Assembly: GCA_021205185.1 (NCBI GenBank)
Contig: JAJPYB010000013.1
Location: forward strand, 1-64,000
DNA: 64,000 bases
From: Ruminococcus sp.
GTDB taxonomy: Bacteria; Bacillota; Clostridia; Oscillospirales; Ruminococcaceae
Direction: 5' to 3'
The notes below the pieces were generated by a model. It did not search any database, was not told where the DNA came from, and worked only from the letters and a program-made list of their open reading frames with translations. The position numbers and the translations under genes were made by a program. Shown piece after piece: positions 117 through 6,033 of this stretch. Numbering within the stretch: the first letter of the stretch is position 1; each line of letters begins with the position of its first letter.

Positions 117-1454
117 TTGTTGGCTTTAGGTCTTTTGTGTATTGCAATGCTTACATCGGTAGGCTGCGGGGATAACAATACTAGTTCGTCTGAAACTGAT
201 TCTGAAAGTGCAGTTACTACTACGCTTGAAGGTGAAGACGAGACTACTCTTTATGAGGATAACAATGACAGCGAAGCGACAACAAATACAGATTTTGGAG
301 ATGCAAATGTTTTGGTATATCAAAACGAAAATATCAACATATATTATATGCGATGCGAGGAGGATAATTATAACAATCAATCTGTTGTTTTCTATGTTGA
401 AAATAATTACGAAACAAGCGTTGCTATCTTTGCTTCATCACTTGCTTTTGATAAACAAAATATTGATATTGGATGGAACGAGACAGTTGCAGCGTGCTCA
501 GCAGGCGAATTAAGCTTGCCTGTTAAAACCGATGACTCGCTTCCAACATTGACACCATCTATCCTTACTATGGAAGGTCGATTACTAGACAGCAATTGGG
601 ATGAAATAATCGACTTCAACATTGTTGATTTGCCAATAGGAACTTCAACCGACATAGAACTTGGCACCAATAAACTTGAATCTGATGTACTCTTATTTAG
701 AAGCGATAATATTAGTATTTATTATCGTTCTTGCGAAAAGGATGATAATAACGATGAAAATGTTGTGTTTTATGTTATTAACAACTATGATACCGGGATT
801 TCTATGATGGCAACATCCTTAGCGTTAGATGGTGTAAATGTAGATGTGGGATGGAACGAGACAATCGCTGCACATTCAGAGGGAGAATTGAGATTACCTG
901 TAGATGACGGAAATGAACTTCCGACATATACACCGTTGCGCATTACTATTGATGCACGGCTTCTCGACAGTAGTTGGGAATCAGTAAAAGAATTTAGCAT
1001 CATCAATCAATCGTTACAAGAAACAACTCTTGATGATATAGAAGAAGATAGCACCACTCAGCAAGAAACAGAATATTTTATTGCACAGGGTAATACAACG
1101 TTATATAATTTTTTGGATGCAGTCTCTTCAAATGGTTATCATTTATATAATCCGCAAAGAGATGATGTATATGTAAATGCTGTTGCTAAAGGAACCGGAG
1201 GTTCTTTTAATATTTGCTATATGGTTGAGGAACAACACGTATATATGGTTGAAGTGTTTGCTGATGATTTGATGTCTGATGGTTTTAAAGACTGCGTGCG
1301 AGCAATGGCTTTAACATTGAATCCCAATATTTCTGATGATGGTTTGGAAGAAGCCATAAATTACGTCCTGGATTCTACAGATGAATCTTATGTCATTGAA
1401 GATACATTATTTAGGTTTGATAGCGCAGACAACAAACTTGTAATCACATACTAA
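117..1454 (+). CDS. Lipoprotein with tandem duplicated domain; start frameshifted
   Basis: I do not recognise the family. The protein carries two copies of a domain of about 110 residues (roughly residues 65-180 and 185-300), each with the pattern VVFYVxNNY ... GWNET ... AxSxGEL ... ARLLDSxW. An unrelated C-terminal domain follows (about 330-445). The open frame begins at TTG 117 without a ribosome binding site. An ATG at 89 follows a good GGGAGAGAAG site but is closed after four codons, because the A run at 92-99 has eight As. With seven As it would read MKKTEITKK and run into a typical lipoprotein signal ending in the lipobox SVGC. The true gene therefore probably starts at 89 and is either frameshifted here or phase-variable. 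The product is expected on the outer face of the membrane. Function unknown. Confidence 0.75.
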   Translation: MLALGLLCIAMLTSVGCGDNNTSSSETDSESAVTTTLEGEDETTLYEDNNDSEATTNTDFGDANVLVYQNENINIYYMRCEEDNYNNQSVVFYVENNYETSVAIFASSLAFDKQNIDIGWNETVAACSAGELSLPVKTDDSLPTLTPSILTMEGRLLDSNWDEIIDFNIVDLPIGTSTDIELGTNKLESDVLLFRSDNISIYYRSCEKDDNNDENVVFYVINNYDTGISMMATSLALDGVNVDVGWNETIAAHSEGELRLPVDDGNELPTYTPLRITIDARLLDSSWESVKEFSIINQSLQETTLDDIEEDSTTQQETEYFIAQGNTTLYNFLDAVSSNGYHLYNPQRDDVYVNAVAKGTGGSFNICYMVEEQHVYMVEVFADDLMSDGFKDCVRAMALTLNPNISDDGLEEAINYVLDSTDESYVIEDTLFRFDSADNKLVITY

Positions 1455-1587: not shown

Positions 1588-2598
1588 TCAGCCCTCATCA
1601 CCTTCCTCCCCAAAATTCCTGTAAAATTCTTTAAAGTTGTAGTCCTTTTCCGGTCGGCAAAGCACAGCAAACTGAATAGAATCAAATAGCTGACTGCTAT
1701 CTTTTCCGTTGAAGCTAAAGTAACGAATGGCACGAGCAAATAAATCCGATACGAGGGTCGCGTCGTTTCCGTATATGCCGCACCCAAAAGCGCCCAGGAT
1801 CAGATGACGATATCCACAAGAAGCCGCAACCAGAAGTATGCCGTTAATGCGATTAAGAAGCATAGCTTCATATTCCTGCTGTGACATACCCTCAAGTCCC
1901 AGCCGAACCATCGGAGCGGCACAGCTGATAACAGAAACAGGGAAGGGAGCGTCAAGCGGGTCGGAAACGCTCTTTATAACCTCGACGTTCGGGGAAAATA
2001 TAATGCTGTCAGATCCCATTCGTGTTTTTAACGTTTCGTTGTATTGGTAATACTTTTTCGCAGCTTCGCTTTCTAAAGACAATAAGAGTGAAGTCCTTCG
2101 GCAAAGATCCTCCTCCTGCGCGCTTGCGCCTTGTCTTGTGTGACCGCCTGGGTGAGTAGCGCTCGCTAAATTAAGCAGAAGAATTTCAGGATTCGCTTCT
2201 CCGCTTTCTTTCAAGGCTTTGTATTTATTCTGAGCAAGAGCCAAAGAGTCAGCGTTTTCACAGCTAAAAGAGCATTGAGAAGCTGCTGCTTTATTTTCAC
2301 CAATGCAATTATTTGCTTTTAACGCTTCAATATCATAAGGCAAAAACACTTCTGTATTTTGCATTTGCTCTTTTGTATAGTGAAGCTTAATGGTTTTGTC
2401 GCCTTTTTTGTAGCAACCCTTATCAAGAATACTCAGCGTATCATTAAGCTCGTCAATGTTCTGCTTTTTCCTCATTTCCTTTTGCCGCTCCCTTTGCTGA
2501 ATTTCTTCCTCGGAAAGTCCTGCGTATTCGGCGCTGCGCATTTGAGCCGCTAACTGCTTTAACCTTTCCTCTTCGGGAAGATTTTCCTGCTTAGCCAT
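1588..2598 (-). CDS. Microbial PARG-type macrodomain protein (TIGR02452/DUF2263)
   Basis: Likely poly/mono-ADP-ribose glycohydrolase of the microbial PARG family. It has a helical, charged N-terminal region (to about residue 110) followed by the macrodomain. The family signature GGG-x(6-8)-QEE appears as PGGHTRQGASAQEE near residues 150-163, so the QEE with the catalytic glutamate is kept and the third glycine is His. A second glycine-rich loop, GAFGCGIYGND, follows near residue 265. The start was set at ATG 2598, ten bases after an AAGGAAAGG site; a GTG at 2607 is in frame but sits on that site. The start overlaps the stop of the upstream sirtuin by 8 bp, so translation is probably coupled. 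With two SirTM-like sirtuins in the same operon, it is inferred to be the eraser of an ADP-ribosylation system. Confidence 0.85.
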   Translation of the reverse strand: MAKQENLPEEERLKQLAAQMRSAEYAGLSEEEIQQRERQKEMRKKQNIDELNDTLSILDKGCYKKGDKTIKLHYTKEQMQNTEVFLPYDIEALKANNCIGENKAAASQCSFSCENADSLALAQNKYKALKESGEANPEILLLNLASATHPGGHTRQGASAQEEDLCRRTSLLLSLESEAAKKYYQYNETLKTRMGSDSIIFSPNVEVIKSVSDPLDAPFPVSVISCAAPMVRLGLEGMSQQEYEAMLLNRINGILLVAASCGYRHLILGAFGCGIYGNDATLVSDLFARAIRYFSFNGKDSSQLFDSIQFAVLCRPEKDYNFKEFYRNFGEEGDEG

Positions 2599-3325
2599 TT
2601 TCTTCACGCCTTTCCTTCAGCTTTTTAAATACGTCGTCGCAATCCTCCCGAATGTTAAGCGCAGCCACGCTGTCAAAGCCTGTGCGACCGGGATTTATCT
2701 GTATAATTACAGCTCCTCTGTTTCGATAGCCCCAATATACGTCGCCGTAGTTCCCACGAGTTCCAATGGCAAGAATCAAATCTGCTTGTGAAATCCATTT
2801 TCTTGCTTTGCGGACATCTTCCTCCCATAATCCGATATGACTGTACAGCGGCCAGGGGAGTATTTCGCCTCCGCAGGATTTACAGTGTGGAAGCTCATCC
2901 TGCTTCCAGATTTCATAGCCGTCGTAATGCTGTCCGCAGTCGGCACAGCAGTTAACCTGAAGGCTTCCCTGAATTTCAGCAACATTTTTTGAACCGGCTA
3001 TTGTGTGCATACAGTCCACATTTGTGGTGATAATTCCGAGAAGCTTTCCTTCGTCCTCCAATTCCTTTAAAGCGTAATGACTGAAGCTCGGCTGATATGA
3101 AAACATATTATCAAGATATGTCGGCAGGAAGGAGCTGTAACTGTCGCCGCTTCTTCTCATTCTGCCAGCGCCTCGGTTGGAAAACAGCATTTGCCCATAC
3201 GTTATACCTCCGCCTCCGACAGAAATTCCTGCGCCTGTAGTTGCAACGATATTACGACTGTTGTTAATATAAGCGGCTAGCTGCCCAATCTGATCATTGC
3301 TTTGACTGCTCTTAAAAAAACTCAT
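2591..3325 (-). CDS. Class M-like sirtuin (putative protein ADP-ribosyltransferase)
   Basis: SIR2-family NAD-dependent enzyme of 244 aa. GAGIS (31-35) and TNVD (101-104) form the NAD site, and two CxxC pairs (127/130 and 148/151) form the zinc ribbon. The segment after GAGIS lacks the PDFR motif of deacylase sirtuins. The catalytic histidine position reads EIQGS, with Gln119 in place of His. That substitution is a hallmark of the macrodomain-linked class (SirTM), whose members transfer ADP-ribose to protein rather than deacylate it. The gene lies 12 bp after a second sirtuin and overlaps a PARG-like gene. The activity call is inference from family and context. Confidence 0.85.
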   Translation of the reverse strand: MSFFKSSQSNDQIGQLAAYINNSRNIVATTGAGISVGGGGITYGQMLFSNRGAGRMRRSGDSYSSFLPTYLDNMFSYQPSFSHYALKELEDEGKLLGIITTNVDCMHTIAGSKNVAEIQGSLQVNCCADCGQHYDGYEIWKQDELPHCKSCGGEILPWPLYSHIGLWEEDVRKARKWISQADLILAIGTRGNYGDVYWGYRNRGAVIIQINPGRTGFDSVAALNIREDCDDVFKKLKERREENG

Positions 3326-3337
3326 ATGCTCACGTCC

Positions 3338-4063
3338 TTATCCATTCATAACCTTATCGAATACCTCGGCGGCGTCGGCACGAATATTTAAATTTGCAAT
3401 TTTATCAAATTCTGTTGCAGAAGGATTTATCTGAACCAAAATAGTAGTATCTCTCATACGGCTAAGGTATTCATCGCTGCGAAAGCCGGTAGTTCCGATT
3501 ATAATAACTAAATCCGATTTTGAAATCATATCAGTAGCTTTTTGCATATTTTCGTGTGAAGTGACAGCGCTGGCTCTGCTGTTTCGTAAAAAGCAGGTCG
3601 GCATTAAAGGCGCGCCGCATTTCTCACAGCAGGGCATATGCCCCTGATTCCACACCGTATAATCATAGCAGCGGCTTTCGCATTTAATACAGATGTTATC
3701 TCTGAAGCTGCCTTGAAATTCAACAACATTTTTTGATCCCGCAATAGTATGCAGGCAGTCAAGGTTTTGCGTAACAATTCCGTAGATTTTTCCTTGCCTT
3801 TCAAGCTCTGCAAGCTGCTTGTGAACGACGCTTGGTCCCTTTACAAAAGTTGCGTCAAGGAATGCGTCCTTCATCGTAGCATAAAACTTCTCAGGGCTTT
3901 TGCGAATATAGGAAGGGGAAAATATTCGACCCGCATTCATTATACCAACGCTCTGCTTTAGCCTTCGCATACCGTAAAGATATGAAATTCCGGCTCCAGT
4001 TACAGCAACAGTTTTTTTGCTTCTCGCCATATATTCCTTTAATCGAATGTATTCTTGTTCCAT
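3338..4063 (-). CDS. Class M-like sirtuin, second copy
   Basis: SIR2-family protein of 241 aa and first gene of the three-gene operon. GAGIS is at 23-27, TQNLD at 98-102, and the zinc CxxC pairs at 125/128 and 146/149. The catalytic position reads EFQGS with Gln117 in place of His, as in its neighbour, and no PDFR motif follows GAGIS. The two sirtuins are clearly paralogous (shared TIAGSKNV segment and shared ending VQINPxxTxFDxxAxLNIRxD) but quite diverged, so they may have different targets or work as a heteromer. The start ATG at 4063 follows a weak AAAATGG-type region. It is inferred to be a writer partner of the PARG-like eraser. Confidence 0.85.
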   Translation of the reverse strand: MEQEYIRLKEYMARSKKTVAVTGAGISYLYGMRRLKQSVGIMNAGRIFSPSYIRKSPEKFYATMKDAFLDATFVKGPSVVHKQLAELERQGKIYGIVTQNLDCLHTIAGSKNVVEFQGSFRDNICIKCESRCYDYTVWNQGHMPCCEKCGAPLMPTCFLRNSRASAVTSHENMQKATDMISKSDLVIIIGTTGFRSDEYLSRMRDTTILVQINPSATEFDKIANLNIRADAAEVFDKVMNG

Positions 4064-4098
4064 TTTAAGTAGCCTCCAATCAATAAATTACATACAGC

Positions 4099-4146
4099 AA
4101 CACCCATCGGAGAGAGCAAATTCCCTTCGGTGGGTGCTAATTTTTT
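4099..4146 (+). terminator. Hairpin with T run between the sirtuin operon and nitroreductase
   Basis: CACCCATCGG pairs with the TTCGGTGGGTG arm (one GT pair) and is followed on the plus strand by TTTTTT. Both neighbours are on the minus strand and the T run is on the plus side, so its role in ending the nitroreductase transcript is unclear. Confidence 0.4.
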
Positions 4147-4173
4147 AAATGCGTAAATCTTAAGTCTGGGAAA

Positions 4174-4842
4174 TTACATCCAGGTGAAATTGTCCGTACC
4201 TGCGCCAAGCTCAAAGTGATATTTAACTATTCCTAAATCAGCTCCGGAAAAAGAACCGCTGCTGCAGGATATACTAACCTTATCCTCCTTGCCTTTTATG
4301 GAGAAAGCCTGCTTGTTCATAGCCGTAGGAGCTAATAAAGCTGATGTAACGCCTTCGTTGAACCATTGCGGCGTAGCACCTTCATAAGAGGACACCTCTG
4401 ATGCAGCTTTAGACTTGTGCGCAACGCCTTGCTCTTGACCATAGCCAACGGCGACAACTCCGATGATTTTAGCGTTGTCTCCAGCATTCGAGTTCTTTCT
4501 CGCACCCTTGCGGCTGAACATTCCTCCGATCCACCAGGTGTTCAAGCCGAGCGTCTGTGCGTACAGCATTAAATCTGCGCTGCTGTATCCCAGCTTTTCA
4601 TCAACGTCTGCTGAGTCATGACCCGCAAGTATAATGTAGTTATTAACGCCCTTTGACATAAGCAGCGCTATAATTCCGGGCATTGAATCCTTGTTATTTG
4701 TAACAAGCTGCATATTTAAGCCGAATTTCTGATTCTGAGCTTCAATTCGCTCGTTAAGCTTAACGATTGCGTCTTTTGCCAACGGTTCATTCTTATACTT
4801 GCGAACGGAGTGCCGTGCGCTCATTGCTTCCTTTAAGTTCAT
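4174..4842 (-). CDS. Nitroreductase-family protein
   Basis: Flavin-dependent nitroreductase-like fold of about 222 aa. The N-terminal AMSARHSVRKYK is the typical phosphate-binding stretch for FMN, and a GVVAVGYG-type strand follows in the middle. The start was moved to ATG 4842: the longer frame starts with ATGGAGG, which is the ribosome binding site itself. It lies downstream of a second, shorter nitroreductase on the same strand, probably in one operon controlled by the divergent Rrf2 regulator. The C-terminal part (about 130-222) resembles the second half of duplicated putative nitroreductases. Substrate unknown. Confidence 0.8.
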   Translation of the reverse strand: MNLKEAMSARHSVRKYKNEPLAKDAIVKLNERIEAQNQKFGLNMQLVTNNKDSMPGIIALLMSKGVNNYIILAGHDSADVDEKLGYSSADLMLYAQTLGLNTWWIGGMFSRKGARKNSNAGDNAKIIGVVAVGYGQEQGVAHKSKAASEVSSYEGATPQWFNEGVTSALLAPTAMNKQAFSIKGKEDKVSISCSSGSFSGADLGIVKYHFELGAGTDNFTWM

Positions 4843-4883
4843 AATAACCTCCATAACTATCGACCTGATATGTTAAGCGTTCT

Positions 4884-5414
4884 CTAAATATAGTTTGTTT
4901 CAATAGAAACAGATATATTTCTCGGCTGTGCTTCGCCACTCTTGCTGTAACCTAGCGCAGCTGCTGAAACAGGTCTGAATCCTTCAGGAATACCCATTTT
5001 ATCACACAGCTCTTTATTTTTAGCTAGAGCCTGTACACCGCCCCATAGATAAATGTTATCTACTCCTGCGTCTGTTGCCGCAAGTAACATATTCTCAATA
5101 ACGCAAGCTGCATTTGCGTACTCAATTCCCGGCGCCATTTGTTTTTCACTTGCGCTGACAAAAATGACAACAGGCGCGCCGTAGAAGAAATCTCTCGGTT
5201 CCATTTTCATAGCAGCGGCGGTTGTCTGATTTATTTCATCGAGAATTTCTTTGCTGCTGCACACCGTTAAATGAAGAGAATCCTTTTTGCCTGCGCCGAT
5301 CGGAGCCTGGCAGCCTGCCTTTACGATTGTATCAATAATTTCATCCGCAACCGCTTTATCAGGGTCAAAATCCCTTGTTGACCTTCTTCTTGCAATAGCT
5401 TCTAATGTTTGCAT
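4884..5414 (-). CDS. Nitroreductase-family protein (small)
   Basis: Flavoprotein of 176 aa. RRRSTRDFDPDKAV at the N-terminus and NIYLWGGVQAL plus AAALGYSKSG in the C-terminal half are typical of the nitroreductase superfamily. The start was set at ATG 5414, five bases after GGAGG; the longer frame begins in that site. It is the first gene after a perfect TTGACA-N17-TATAAT promoter that overlaps two palindromic operators, so it is probably repressed by the divergently encoded Rrf2 protein and induced by oxidative, nitrosative or electrophile stress (inference). Confidence 0.85.
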   Translation of the reverse strand: MQTLEAIARRRSTRDFDPDKAVADEIIDTIVKAGCQAPIGAGKKDSLHLTVCSSKEILDEINQTTAAAMKMEPRDFFYGAPVVIFVSASEKQMAPGIEYANAACVIENMLLAATDAGVDNIYLWGGVQALAKNKELCDKMGIPEGFRPVSAAALGYSKSGEAQPRNISVSIETNYI

Positions 5415-5428
5415 AGAAAACACCTCCA

Positions 5429-5489
5429 TAATGTAATATCTGCAATTACATTATACTGCCTTGAAAATGTAATGTCAAGAGTTACATTT
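5429..5489. promoter_or_regulatory. Twin Rrf2-type operators within a divergent promoter
   Basis: Two copies of ATGTAA-N9-TTACAT sit at 5431-5451 and 5467-5487, centres 36 bp apart. The minus-strand promoter TTGACA (5478-5473) -N17- TATAAT (5455-5450) overlaps both copies. The plus-strand promoter TTGATT (5488-5493) -N17- TATACT (5511-5516) abuts the second. The arrangement predicts autorepression of the regulator and repression of the nitroreductases. Confidence 0.8.
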
Positions 5490-5556: not shown

Positions 5557-6033
5557 ATGTGCGTCAGCAAACGGTTTCCATTAGCGGTACATTCGCTATT
5601 GTTCGTAGCGGTCTTGTCTCCTAAAAAGCGTGTAACAAGTGCGCTTGTTGCCGAAAGCACACGTTCTAATCCTGTTACAGTAAGAAATATTTTTCTCAAT
5701 CTATCGGACAGCGGACTGCTGATAGCTTCGGCAGGAAAAAACGGCGGAGTACGCTTGGCAAGAGAACCGAAAAATATCACGCTGTGGGATATTTATCAAG
5801 CTGTAGAGCTTAAAGACGTAAATAAGATTTTTAATATGTATGAGGGAAGTGGTACCTGTCCGATAGGCAAGAATTTCTATAAAATTCTGCACCCTCACAT
5901 GGTATCGGCTTCAAACGCTATGAAGGCGGATATGGAAAGGGTAACCTTGGAAACGCTAATGTCAGAGCTAAAAGAGCTGATTAAAACTTCCCCTTTGGAA
6001 ACCTGTCAGGCAAAATCTTTAAAGCAACAATAG
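5557..6033 (+). CDS. Rrf2-family transcriptional regulator
   Basis: Winged-helix repressor of 158 aa. The N-terminal RFPLAVHSLLFVA, the recognition region NPVTVRNIFLNLSDSGLL and the wing GKNGGVRLAR are typical of Rrf2 proteins of the YwnA group. Only one Cys (in TCPIGKN) falls in the sensor region, so the three-Cys [2Fe-2S] cluster of IscR is absent; a redox-Cys or ligand sensor is more likely. The start at 5557 follows AGAGGG; the frame is open further upstream but has no site there. It is divergent from two nitroreductases and probably binds the paired ATGTAA-N9-TTACAT sites. Confidence 0.85.
   Translation: MCVSKRFPLAVHSLLFVAVLSPKKRVTSALVAESTRSNPVTVRNIFLNLSDSGLLIASAGKNGGVRLAREPKNITLWDIYQAVELKDVNKIFNMYEGSGTCPIGKNFYKILHPHMVSASNAMKADMERVTLETLMSELKELIKTSPLETCQAKSLKQQ

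What the first reader, a model, noticed from the sequence alone, without database searches (positions are those of the whole stretch)
1588..4063. Operon of two class-M-like sirtuins plus a microbial PARG macrodomain
Sequence shows two diverged sirtuins, both with Gln in place of the catalytic His (EIQGS and EFQGS), and an overlapping PARG-type macrodomain protein. In known SirTM loci a single sirtuin is linked to a zinc macrodomain, a GcvH-like carrier and a lipoate ligase. Here the carrier and ligase are absent, the eraser belongs to a different macrodomain family, and there are two writers. This looks like a separate reversible ADP-ribosylation system, possibly for stress or phage defence. 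I do not know of a description of this arrangement, but cannot search.
Basis: partly seen in the sequence, partly recalled or inferred. Interest (0 to 1): 0.78.

Follow-up and report, generated by a model that had tools for sequence, protein, structure and literature searches.

The report
Redox-controlled twin sirtuin–PARG operon
A bacterium carries a tightly controlled operon in which two unusual sirtuins, both lacking the normal catalytic histidine, sit with a matching ADP-ribose-removing enzyme and two flavin reductases; it looks like an undescribed switchable protein- or chemical-tagging system.

Summary
Window 1588-4063 (minus strand) encodes two sirtuins with Gln for the catalytic His and a TIGR02452/PF10021 PARG-type protein. 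The interpretation changes in three ways. (1) The sirtuins are not class M: their profile matches canonical sirtuins far better (hhalign score 305 against 93), they lack SirTM inserts, and this genome has a genuine SirTM/Zn-macro pair elsewhere. (2) The operon is larger: two nitroreductase genes lie upstream, behind a perfect TTGACA-17-TATAAT promoter that overlaps two palindromes, divergent from an Rrf2 regulator. That layout recurs at 27 of 33 Rrf2 genes examined (window included), and the genome has no other perfect palindrome. So a dedicated, probably redox-type switch controls it; I found no sign of phage defence. (3) The PARG is altered too: 65 of 65 sirtuin-linked copies lack the third Gly of the GGG-x7-QEE signature that 27 of 27 unlinked PARGs of the family keep. 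The best 80 database matches come from 74 metagenome-assembled genomes; three loci are from a named koala, the hosts of the rest are unread. I read it as an inducible, reversible ADP-ribosylation module. Catalysis and target are untested. New variant of a known kind.

The parts
1588..2607 (-). PARG-type (TIGR02452/PF10021) macrodomain protein; likely ATG start at 2598; ~54-residue conserved charged N-terminal extension; PGG-H-TRQGASAQEE catalytic loop
   Evidence: third Gly of GGG replaced
2591..3325 (-). SIRB: sirtuin with Gln for catalytic His (EIQGS), TTNVD, GAGIS, CxxC..CxxC zinc ribbon
3338..4063 (-). SIRA: sirtuin with Gln for catalytic His (EFQGS), TQNLD, GAGIS, zinc ribbon
4064..4173 (-). 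intergenic stretch with a conserved hairpin-like sequence (CACCCACCGAAG...CTCCGATGGGTG) between NTR1586 and SIRA
   Evidence: alignment of 5 sequences from 4 genomes; no Rfam match there
4174..4854 (-). NTR1586: TM1586-type nitroreductase (PF14512); likely start at 4842 behind GGAGGT
   Evidence: linked in relatives
4884..5429 (-). NTR881: small nitroreductase-family flavoprotein (PF00881); likely start at 5414 behind GGAGGTG
   Evidence: linked in relatives
5431..5451 (.). operator-like palindrome 2, ATGTAATATCTGCAATTACAT, at the end of the -10 and the start region of the operon promoter
5450..5478 (-). perfect sigma-70 consensus promoter TTGACA-17-TATAAT for NTR881-NTR1586-SIRA-SIRB-PARG
5467..5487 (.). 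operator-like palindrome 1, ATGTAATGTCAAGAGTTACAT, covering the -35
5557..6033 (+). Rrf2-family regulator (PF02082), divergent; start refined from the listed 5488 to the ATG of MCVSKRFP

Best explanation
It is a locally regulated, stress-inducible, reversible ADP-ribosylation operon. Step 1 (strong sequence inference): the Rrf2 protein binds the two ATGTAAY-N7-RTTACAT palindromes that cover the -35 and the -10/start region of a perfect consensus promoter and holds the operon off. Step 2 (inferred): a reactive, redox-active or electrophilic chemical inactivates Rrf2 and the operon fires. Step 3 (inferred from family): the two nitroreductases, or flavodoxins in some relatives, reduce the chemical. 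Step 4 (inferred from the Gln and from SirTM precedent): SIRA and SIRB cannot deacylate normally and instead move ADP-ribose from NAD+ onto a target, the two paralogues having different targets. Step 5 (inferred): the altered PARG, whose catalytic QEE is intact but whose GGG loop is changed, removes that mark and resets the system. The target is unknown; no widely conserved small carrier protein was found.
For: Gln on the catalytic position in 209 of 210 SIRA/SIRB-type ORF hits of at least 180 aa in cassette loci, against His in all 26 other sirtuin hits of the same set (several loci cover the same gene and are counted more than once; the 6 SirTM hits are apart). In 27 of 27 aligned cassette sirtuins the NAD-site residues G31, G33, I34, S35, N102, D104, N211 and four zinc cysteines are invariant. 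PARG QEE invariant in 20 of 20; third Gly absent in 65 of 65 sirtuin-linked PARGs, present in 27 of 27 family PARGs without a nearby sirtuin. Promoter plus palindrome at 27 of 33 Rrf2 genes, perfect promoter in 46 of 3000 random windows of the same loci; palindrome with at most 2 mismatches upstream of 28 of 33 Rrf2 genes against 26 of 2000 random windows; the two perfect palindromes are the only perfect ones in the 1.75 Mb genome. A divergent relative, L205, has MarR, flavodoxin, nitroreductase and Gln sirtuin in overlapping frames; L116 and L140 keep a diverged pair of nitroreductases (29% and 41% identity; Pfam for L116). Known SirTM: Gln for His, transferase and not deacylase, flavoprotein neighbours, oxidative-stress induction (PMC4518038 and PMC11490716, passages).
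Against: No enzymatic evidence. By overall sequence these are canonical-type sirtuins, so the SirTM precedent carries over through one residue. PARG is reported to cut ribose-ribose bonds and not the terminal protein-ribose bond (PMC7050489, passage), so its fit as eraser of a mono-ADP-ribose mark is uncertain. PARG is missing downstream in 11 of 62 loci (one has it upstream) and nitroreductases are missing within 5 kb upstream in 18 of 47. The diverged relatives L204 and L205 have no PARG beside the sirtuin. In SpySirTM the Gln works with Arg192; the matching SirTM Arg aligns with Leu in SIRB. One SIRB (L152) has Glu, not Gln. The sister species' Rrf2 gene is frameshifted in its assembly, and one Rrf2 (L151) has no Cys at all. 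No structure could be predicted.
Confidence: 0.5

Rival explanations
1. Xenobiotic inactivation: the sirtuins ADP-ribosylate a small molecule (as Arr does to rifampicin, recalled) that the nitroreductases also attack; PARG recycles the adduct or rescues mis-tagged proteins.
For: Flavin reductases in the same transcription unit and a local repressor are typical of detoxification operons (family knowledge); flavin proteins persist beside the sirtuin in the PARG-less relative L205; all 80 listed loci come from a few MAG name blocks, three of them koala by record title.
Against: No sirtuin is known to me that modifies xenobiotics (recalled). A dedicated eraser fits a regulatory mark better than a dead-end adduct.
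Confidence: 0.17
2. Deacylation with a twist: Gln still supports NAD-dependent deacylation (or O-acyl-ADP-ribose formation), and the PARG-type macrodomain clears the ADP-ribose product.
For: Sequence is otherwise closest to canonical deacylases; some macrodomains (MacroD1, MacroD2, TARG1) are reported to hydrolyse O-acetyl-ADP-ribose (PMC7050489, passage).
Against: The catalytic His is absent in all 210 (Gln 209, Glu 1); the canonical DFR motif is also lost; the genome already has an ordinary His sirtuin.
Confidence: 0.15
3. Class M sirtuins proper, with the Zn-macro partner swapped for PARG.
For: Gln for His; AU test does not reject all Gln sirtuins on one side (p 0.36; without one long row p 0.57, where the held tree even scored 1.9 log units better).
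Against: hhalign 93 against 305 for canonical; SirTM inserts absent; the own SirTM has no Pfam match at E 0.001 while these match SIR2 strongly; own SirTM pair present.
Confidence: 0.1
4. NAD-depleting or ADP-ribosylating anti-phage defence.
For: SIR2 domains act in several defence systems (recalled; mentioned in PMC9503650, passages).
Against: No PADLOC match for the 3 proteins; no nuclease or Argonaute among the 10 neighbour proteins scanned; no relative in viral contigs or plasmids; conserved promoter/operator with flavin reductases.
Confidence: 0.04

Closest known systems
SirTM (class M sirtuin)/Zn-macrodomain operons, including the GcvH-L/LplA2 extended form (PMC4518038, PMC11490716)
   Same: Gln in place of catalytic His; sirtuin and ADP-ribose hydrolase in one operon; flavoprotein neighbours
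   Different: Different sirtuin group without SirTM inserts; two to four sirtuins, not one; PARG-type and not Zn-macro eraser; no lipoyl carrier or ligase found; Rrf2 with its own operators. A true pair coexists in this genome.
Microbial PARG (TIGR02452, DUF2263/PF10021; solved relatives 5zdf and 3sig)
   Same: Family match, QEE catalytic motif, AFGCG motif
   Different: Third Gly of GGG replaced (mostly Gln, His or Arg) in the sirtuin-linked copies; conserved N-terminal extension; genetic link to Gln sirtuins
Canonical bacterial NAD-dependent deacylases (CobB type)
   Same: Overall sequence, zinc ribbon, NAD site; closest by profile
   Different: Catalytic His and DFR motif lost; usually paired or in triplets with PARG
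Rrf2-family local regulators (general family knowledge)
   Same: Divergent regulator, palindromic sites over the promoter, mostly one conserved Cys
   Different: The controlled unit here includes sirtuins and PARG

Membership tests
Class M sirtuin (SirTM) | QG in place of HG at the catalytic position | tested here: met
Class M sirtuin (SirTM) | Genetic link to a Zn-binding macrodomain of the PRK04143 kind | tested here: not met
   Partner is PF10021/TIGR02452; the genome's PRK04143 gene is on contig C8 beside a true SirTM
Class M sirtuin (SirTM) | Sequence membership of the class M group, with its inserts | tested here: not met
   the AU test does not exclude a common side of the tree
Class M sirtuin (SirTM) | Arg192 partner of the Gln | tested here: inconclusive
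   The matching SirTM Arg (placed by the offset of the Gln) aligns with Leu in SIRB; SIRA has an F-x-R nearby (listing) whose place is not settled
Class M sirtuin (SirTM) | ADP-ribosyltransferase without deacylase activity | not testable with these tools
   needs enzyme assay
Microbial PARG | PF10021/TIGR02452 score over curated cut-off | tested here: met
   100.9 against 23.5 bits; 151.7 against 50 bits
Microbial PARG | GGG-X6-8-QEE signature | tested here: not met
   QEE and spacing kept, third Gly replaced in 65 of 65 linked copies with a readable motif; signature recalled, seen as GGG in 27 of 27 family controls
Microbial PARG | Poly(ADP-ribose) glycohydrolase activity | not testable with these tools
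   needs enzyme assay
Canonical sirtuin deacylase | Catalytic His | tested here: not met
Known anti-phage defence system | Match to a PADLOC profile | tested here: not met
   0 of 3 proteins
Rrf2 regulator | PF02082 over cut-off | tested here: met
   93.5 against 30 bits

The most novel reading that the evidence does not exclude
A second sirtuin-based ADP-ribosylation system, distinct from SirTM, in which writer and eraser changed their active sites together (His to Gln in the sirtuins, third Gly lost in the PARG), shared horizontally through the gut community of a leaf-eating marsupial and switched on, through Rrf2, by reactive leaf chemicals.
Probability: 0.22. Interest if true: 0.85.

Novelty: new variant of a known kind. 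Interest (0 to 1): 0.66.

Why it matters
SirTMs are described as apparently the only sirtuins with transferase activity alone, and GcvH-L as their only known target (PMC11490716, passages). A second set of Gln sirtuins with another eraser family would show whether the His-to-Gln change alone makes a transferase, and offers a natural experiment: paired sirtuin paralogues, a co-changed PARG and a clean one-operon switch. If the host link holds, it would also give a molecular lead on how gut bacteria cope with toxic leaf diets.

Tried and rejected
Lipoyl or other small carrier as target: ORFs of 30-90 aa around the cassette were clustered; no family spans more than 5 loci, so no general carrier was found. 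Of the neighbour clusters I scanned ten proteins; none is GcvH or a lipoate ligase; an AMP-binding ligase follows in 20 of 52 loci, unexplained. Defence: rejected (one search gave only 9 phage records, 8 listed, at 33-37% identity over part of the protein). RNA element: only one sub-threshold Rfam hit, elsewhere. Independent origin of the Gln: I expected the tree to show it, but the AU test does not reject a common side, so I do not claim it. Host: I tried to establish the source of the JAJ* records without success. Only the three Zagget loci are koala by title and paper. Rrf2 sites beyond the operon: one 1-mismatch site on contig C6, not followed. Check of the one Gly-bearing cassette-type PARG (L069): no sirtuin on its contig, but the contig ends 0.5 kb upstream of the gene, so linkage is not excluded there.
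Full report
WHAT IS THERE. Three minus-strand ORFs fill 1588-4063. SIRA (3338-4063) and SIRB (2591-3325) are SIR2 proteins; the third (1588-2607) is a microbial-type PARG (PF10021, TIGR02452). SIRA and SIRB share 37% identity. In an alignment with 16 His-type sirtuins and 5 SirTMs their Gln lies on the catalytic His column. G31, G33, I34, S35, N102, D104, N211 (SIRB numbering) and four zinc cysteines are invariant in the 27 cassette sirtuins aligned, so NAD binding is expected. Besides the His, the canonical DFR motif is lost (RLK in SIRA, TYG in SIRB of the window). The PARG keeps QEE, and its closest solved relatives by sequence are 5zdf and 3sig.

THE OPERON IS LARGER. Upstream on the same strand lie a TM1586-type nitroreductase (4174-4854) and a small nitroreductase (4884-5429); divergent is an Rrf2-family regulator, whose start I place at 5557. 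The minus strand between them holds a 12-of-12 consensus promoter, TTGACA (5478-5473), 17 nt, TATAAT (5455-5450). Two palindromes ATGTAAY-N7-RTTACAT lie at 5467-5487 (over the -35) and 5431-5451 (over the end of the -10 and the start region); four matches with up to 2 mismatches occur in the window against 0.72 expected. In the whole 1.75 Mb genome only these two are perfect, with one further 1-mismatch site on contig C6.

The same design recurs. Of 33 Rrf2 genes in 32 loci (window included, one known duplicate locus left out), 27 have the perfect promoter, and in all 27 a palindrome (at most 3 mismatches of 14) overlaps it; by my count of that listing 22 of the 27 have two palindromes 36 nt apart. 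The promoter occurs in 46 of 3000 random windows drawn from the same loci, real promoters included. With at most 2 mismatches the palindrome is upstream of 28 of 33, against 26 of 2000 random windows. In seven loci with no nitroreductase found within 5 kb upstream (L086, L089, L100, L118, L129, L145, L153) the Rrf2 gene stands next to the sirtuins, so the link is to the sirtuins themselves. A Cys is at position 100 in 29 of 34 Rrf2 rows (one row a duplicate; two others have one a few residues off, one is truncated, and L151 and L153 lack it); three-Cys iron-sulphur types (recalled) are therefore unlikely and a thiol or electrophile sensor is likelier. In the sister species the Rrf2 frame is broken in the assembly while promoter and both palindromes are kept.

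DISTRIBUTION. A pattern scan of a collection of 84,980 species genomes found 170 relatives; only the best 80 are listed, from 74 MAGs. Families named in the titles, by locus: Lachnospiraceae 24, Oscillospiraceae 14, Erysipelotrichaceae 2, Clostridiaceae 1, Eubacteriaceae 1, none 38. Five MAGs hold 2 or 3 of the loci; one has two SIRB loci 29 kb apart on a contig (L097, L102), of which L097 shows neither SIRA nor PARG. By whole-genome search, sirtuins of this group, told by a clear score gap, are in 6 of 297 genomes of the window's family and in 6 of 299 of the family of G693 at E 1e-36 (G693 included; two of the six have one diverged sirtuin each, without PARG beside it). Across the phylum, 12 of 398 genomes match SIRA at E 1e-26: the window's own and 11 others, and those 11 have His. 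No relative was found in viral contigs or plasmids; 9 phage records match weakly. Patchiness with 70-80% identity across named families suggests horizontal spread (inference).

CASSETTE STATISTICS (loci L075-L154, counting only loci with enough flank): SIRA 68 of 77; PARG downstream 51 of 62; any nitroreductase upstream 29 of 47; Rrf2 or TetR regulator 27 of 47 (Rrf2 19 of 47); extra SIRB-type paralogue 20 of 52. The 11 without PARG downstream are L090, L097, L100, L109 (which has it upstream), L112, L114, L117, L118, L122, L129 and L130; whether their genomes have it elsewhere was not searched in general. For G267, whose cassette lacks it, a PARG of this kind is on another contig (L069). A minimal flavodoxin-SIRA-PARG unit exists (L067).

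A CO-CHANGED PAIR. Of 66 distinct PARG ORFs of at least 180 aa with a readable motif from cassette genomes, 65 lie in loci with cassette sirtuins, and all 65 have Gln 33, His 15, Arg 15, Ala 1 or Lys 1 at the third Gly of GGG; the one with Gly (L069) has no sirtuin on its 7-kb contig. That contig ends 0.5 kb upstream of the gene, behind a YkgJ-like gene, so a sirtuin beyond it is not excluded. Two linked PARGs outside the count, L101 and a broken one in L066, also have Gln. Of 30 other PARG loci of the family, 27 gave a readable motif and all 27 keep GGG; none of the 30 has a sirtuin ORF of at least 180 aa in the 2.1-3.5 kb held. So linkage to Gln sirtuins goes with a changed PARG loop; shared descent of the linked PARGs would give the same pattern, so this may be one change kept, not many. 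[quoted passage not shown]

NOT CLASS M. The genome has a genuine SirTM/Zn-macro pair on contig C8 (L157), with SirTM hallmarks absent from SIRA/SIRB. That SirTM has no Pfam match at E 0.001, whereas SIRA and SIRB match SIR2 at 6e-23 and 6e-21. Profile comparison: cassette sirtuins against five SirTMs E 4e-13, score 93; against eleven His sirtuins E 2e-46, score 305. Trees give SIRA+SIRB 100/100 and SirTM 100/100 as separate groups (SIRA+SIRB 97/95 in the smaller tree). Against my reading: the AU test does not reject all Gln sirtuins on one side (p 0.36; without the long SirTM_L158 row p 0.57, with the held tree 1.9 log units better), so one origin of the Gln remains possible.

HOW IT MOST LIKELY WORKS. 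Rrf2 holds a very strong promoter off through two palindromes; a reactive chemical releases it; nitroreductases act on the chemical while Gln sirtuins ADP-ribosylate targets and the modified PARG reverses this. The regulatory layout is shown by sequence; binding, inducer, transfer, target and reversal are inferred. A relative without PARG but with MarR, flavodoxin, nitroreductase and Gln sirtuin in overlapping frames (L205), and a diverged nitroreductase pair in L116 and L140, make the flavin-redox link a persistent feature, though 18 of 47 loci show no nitroreductase upstream. A caution: PARG is reported to cut ribose-ribose bonds, not the terminal protein-ribose bond (PMC7050489, passage), so either this altered PARG has a new specificity or the product is not a simple mono-ADP-ribosyl protein.

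HOST. Three of the 80 loci carry the name Zagget, a koala. The other 77 bear isolate names in the series U, C, AH, BH, MO and MI, whose host I could not read. Two of them match Zagget contigs over 5.8 kb (mean 96.1%) and 6.8 kb (mean 94.2%), counting only pieces at least 93% identical. Two further koala studies stand in the reference list of a paper on MAG surveys (PMC9911409, reference passages), which does not tie them to these records. A koala or marsupial link is therefore plausible but not shown, and the 90 weaker matches were not listed. The window's own host is unknown.

LITERATURE. Searches of the held open-access library for SirTM with macrodomain, TIGR02452 with Sir2, sirtuin with microbial-type PARG or operon, sirtuin with ADP-ribosylation, nitroreductase or Rrf2, and Sir2 with PARG, gene neighborhood, macro domain or DUF2263 showed no description of this arrangement in what I saw: listings (20 of 352 papers and 12 of 33, all in the others) and passages of four papers. 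Subscription papers, including the 2015 natural-history review of ADP-ribosylation cited, were not read.

VERDICT. Real, conserved, regulated by its layout, and not described in what could be searched. New variant of a known kind: reversible sirtuin-linked ADP-ribosylation, with the enzymatic claim open.

Noticed in passing
genome contig C8, locus L157 (681-2900): A genuine SirTM and Zn-macro pair in the same genome, preceded by a PNPOx-ferredoxin gene (Pfam), so both Gln-sirtuin systems have redox-protein neighbours.
   Followed up: partly
window 4064-4173: Conserved hairpin-like sequence between NTR1586 and SIRA in the loci aligned; no Rfam match there. Could be a processing or attenuation element.
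   Followed up: no
L151 5436-8099, L146 10559-13251: AMP-binding ligase, GNAT acetyltransferase and esterase genes follow PARG in a subset (ligase in 20 of 52 loci), same strand; link to the cassette unknown.
   Followed up: partly
L150 231-542, L116 6974-7294, L206 5783-6082, L069 6629-6937: Small Cys-rich protein (CNxCGKCC, YkgJ-like by eye, no Pfam match) beside the cassette in 16 of 47 loci.
   Followed up: no
L064 11100-11950: Rrf2 gene of the sister species is frameshifted in the assembly while promoter and both palindromes are kept.
   Followed up: partly
L152 8001-8723: The one cassette sirtuin with Glu (ELEG) instead of Gln at the catalytic position.
   Followed up: no
L067 5932-7035: A transposase-like ORF (IS110-like by eye, not searched) stands upstream of a minimal flavodoxin-SIRA-PARG unit.
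   Followed up: no
window 117-1454: Lipoprotein-like ORF with an internal repeat (by eye) and no Pfam or NCBIfam match, convergent with the operon.
   Followed up: no
G000:C6:36807-36827: Only other near-palindrome site (1 mismatch) in the genome; neighbouring genes not examined.
   Followed up: no
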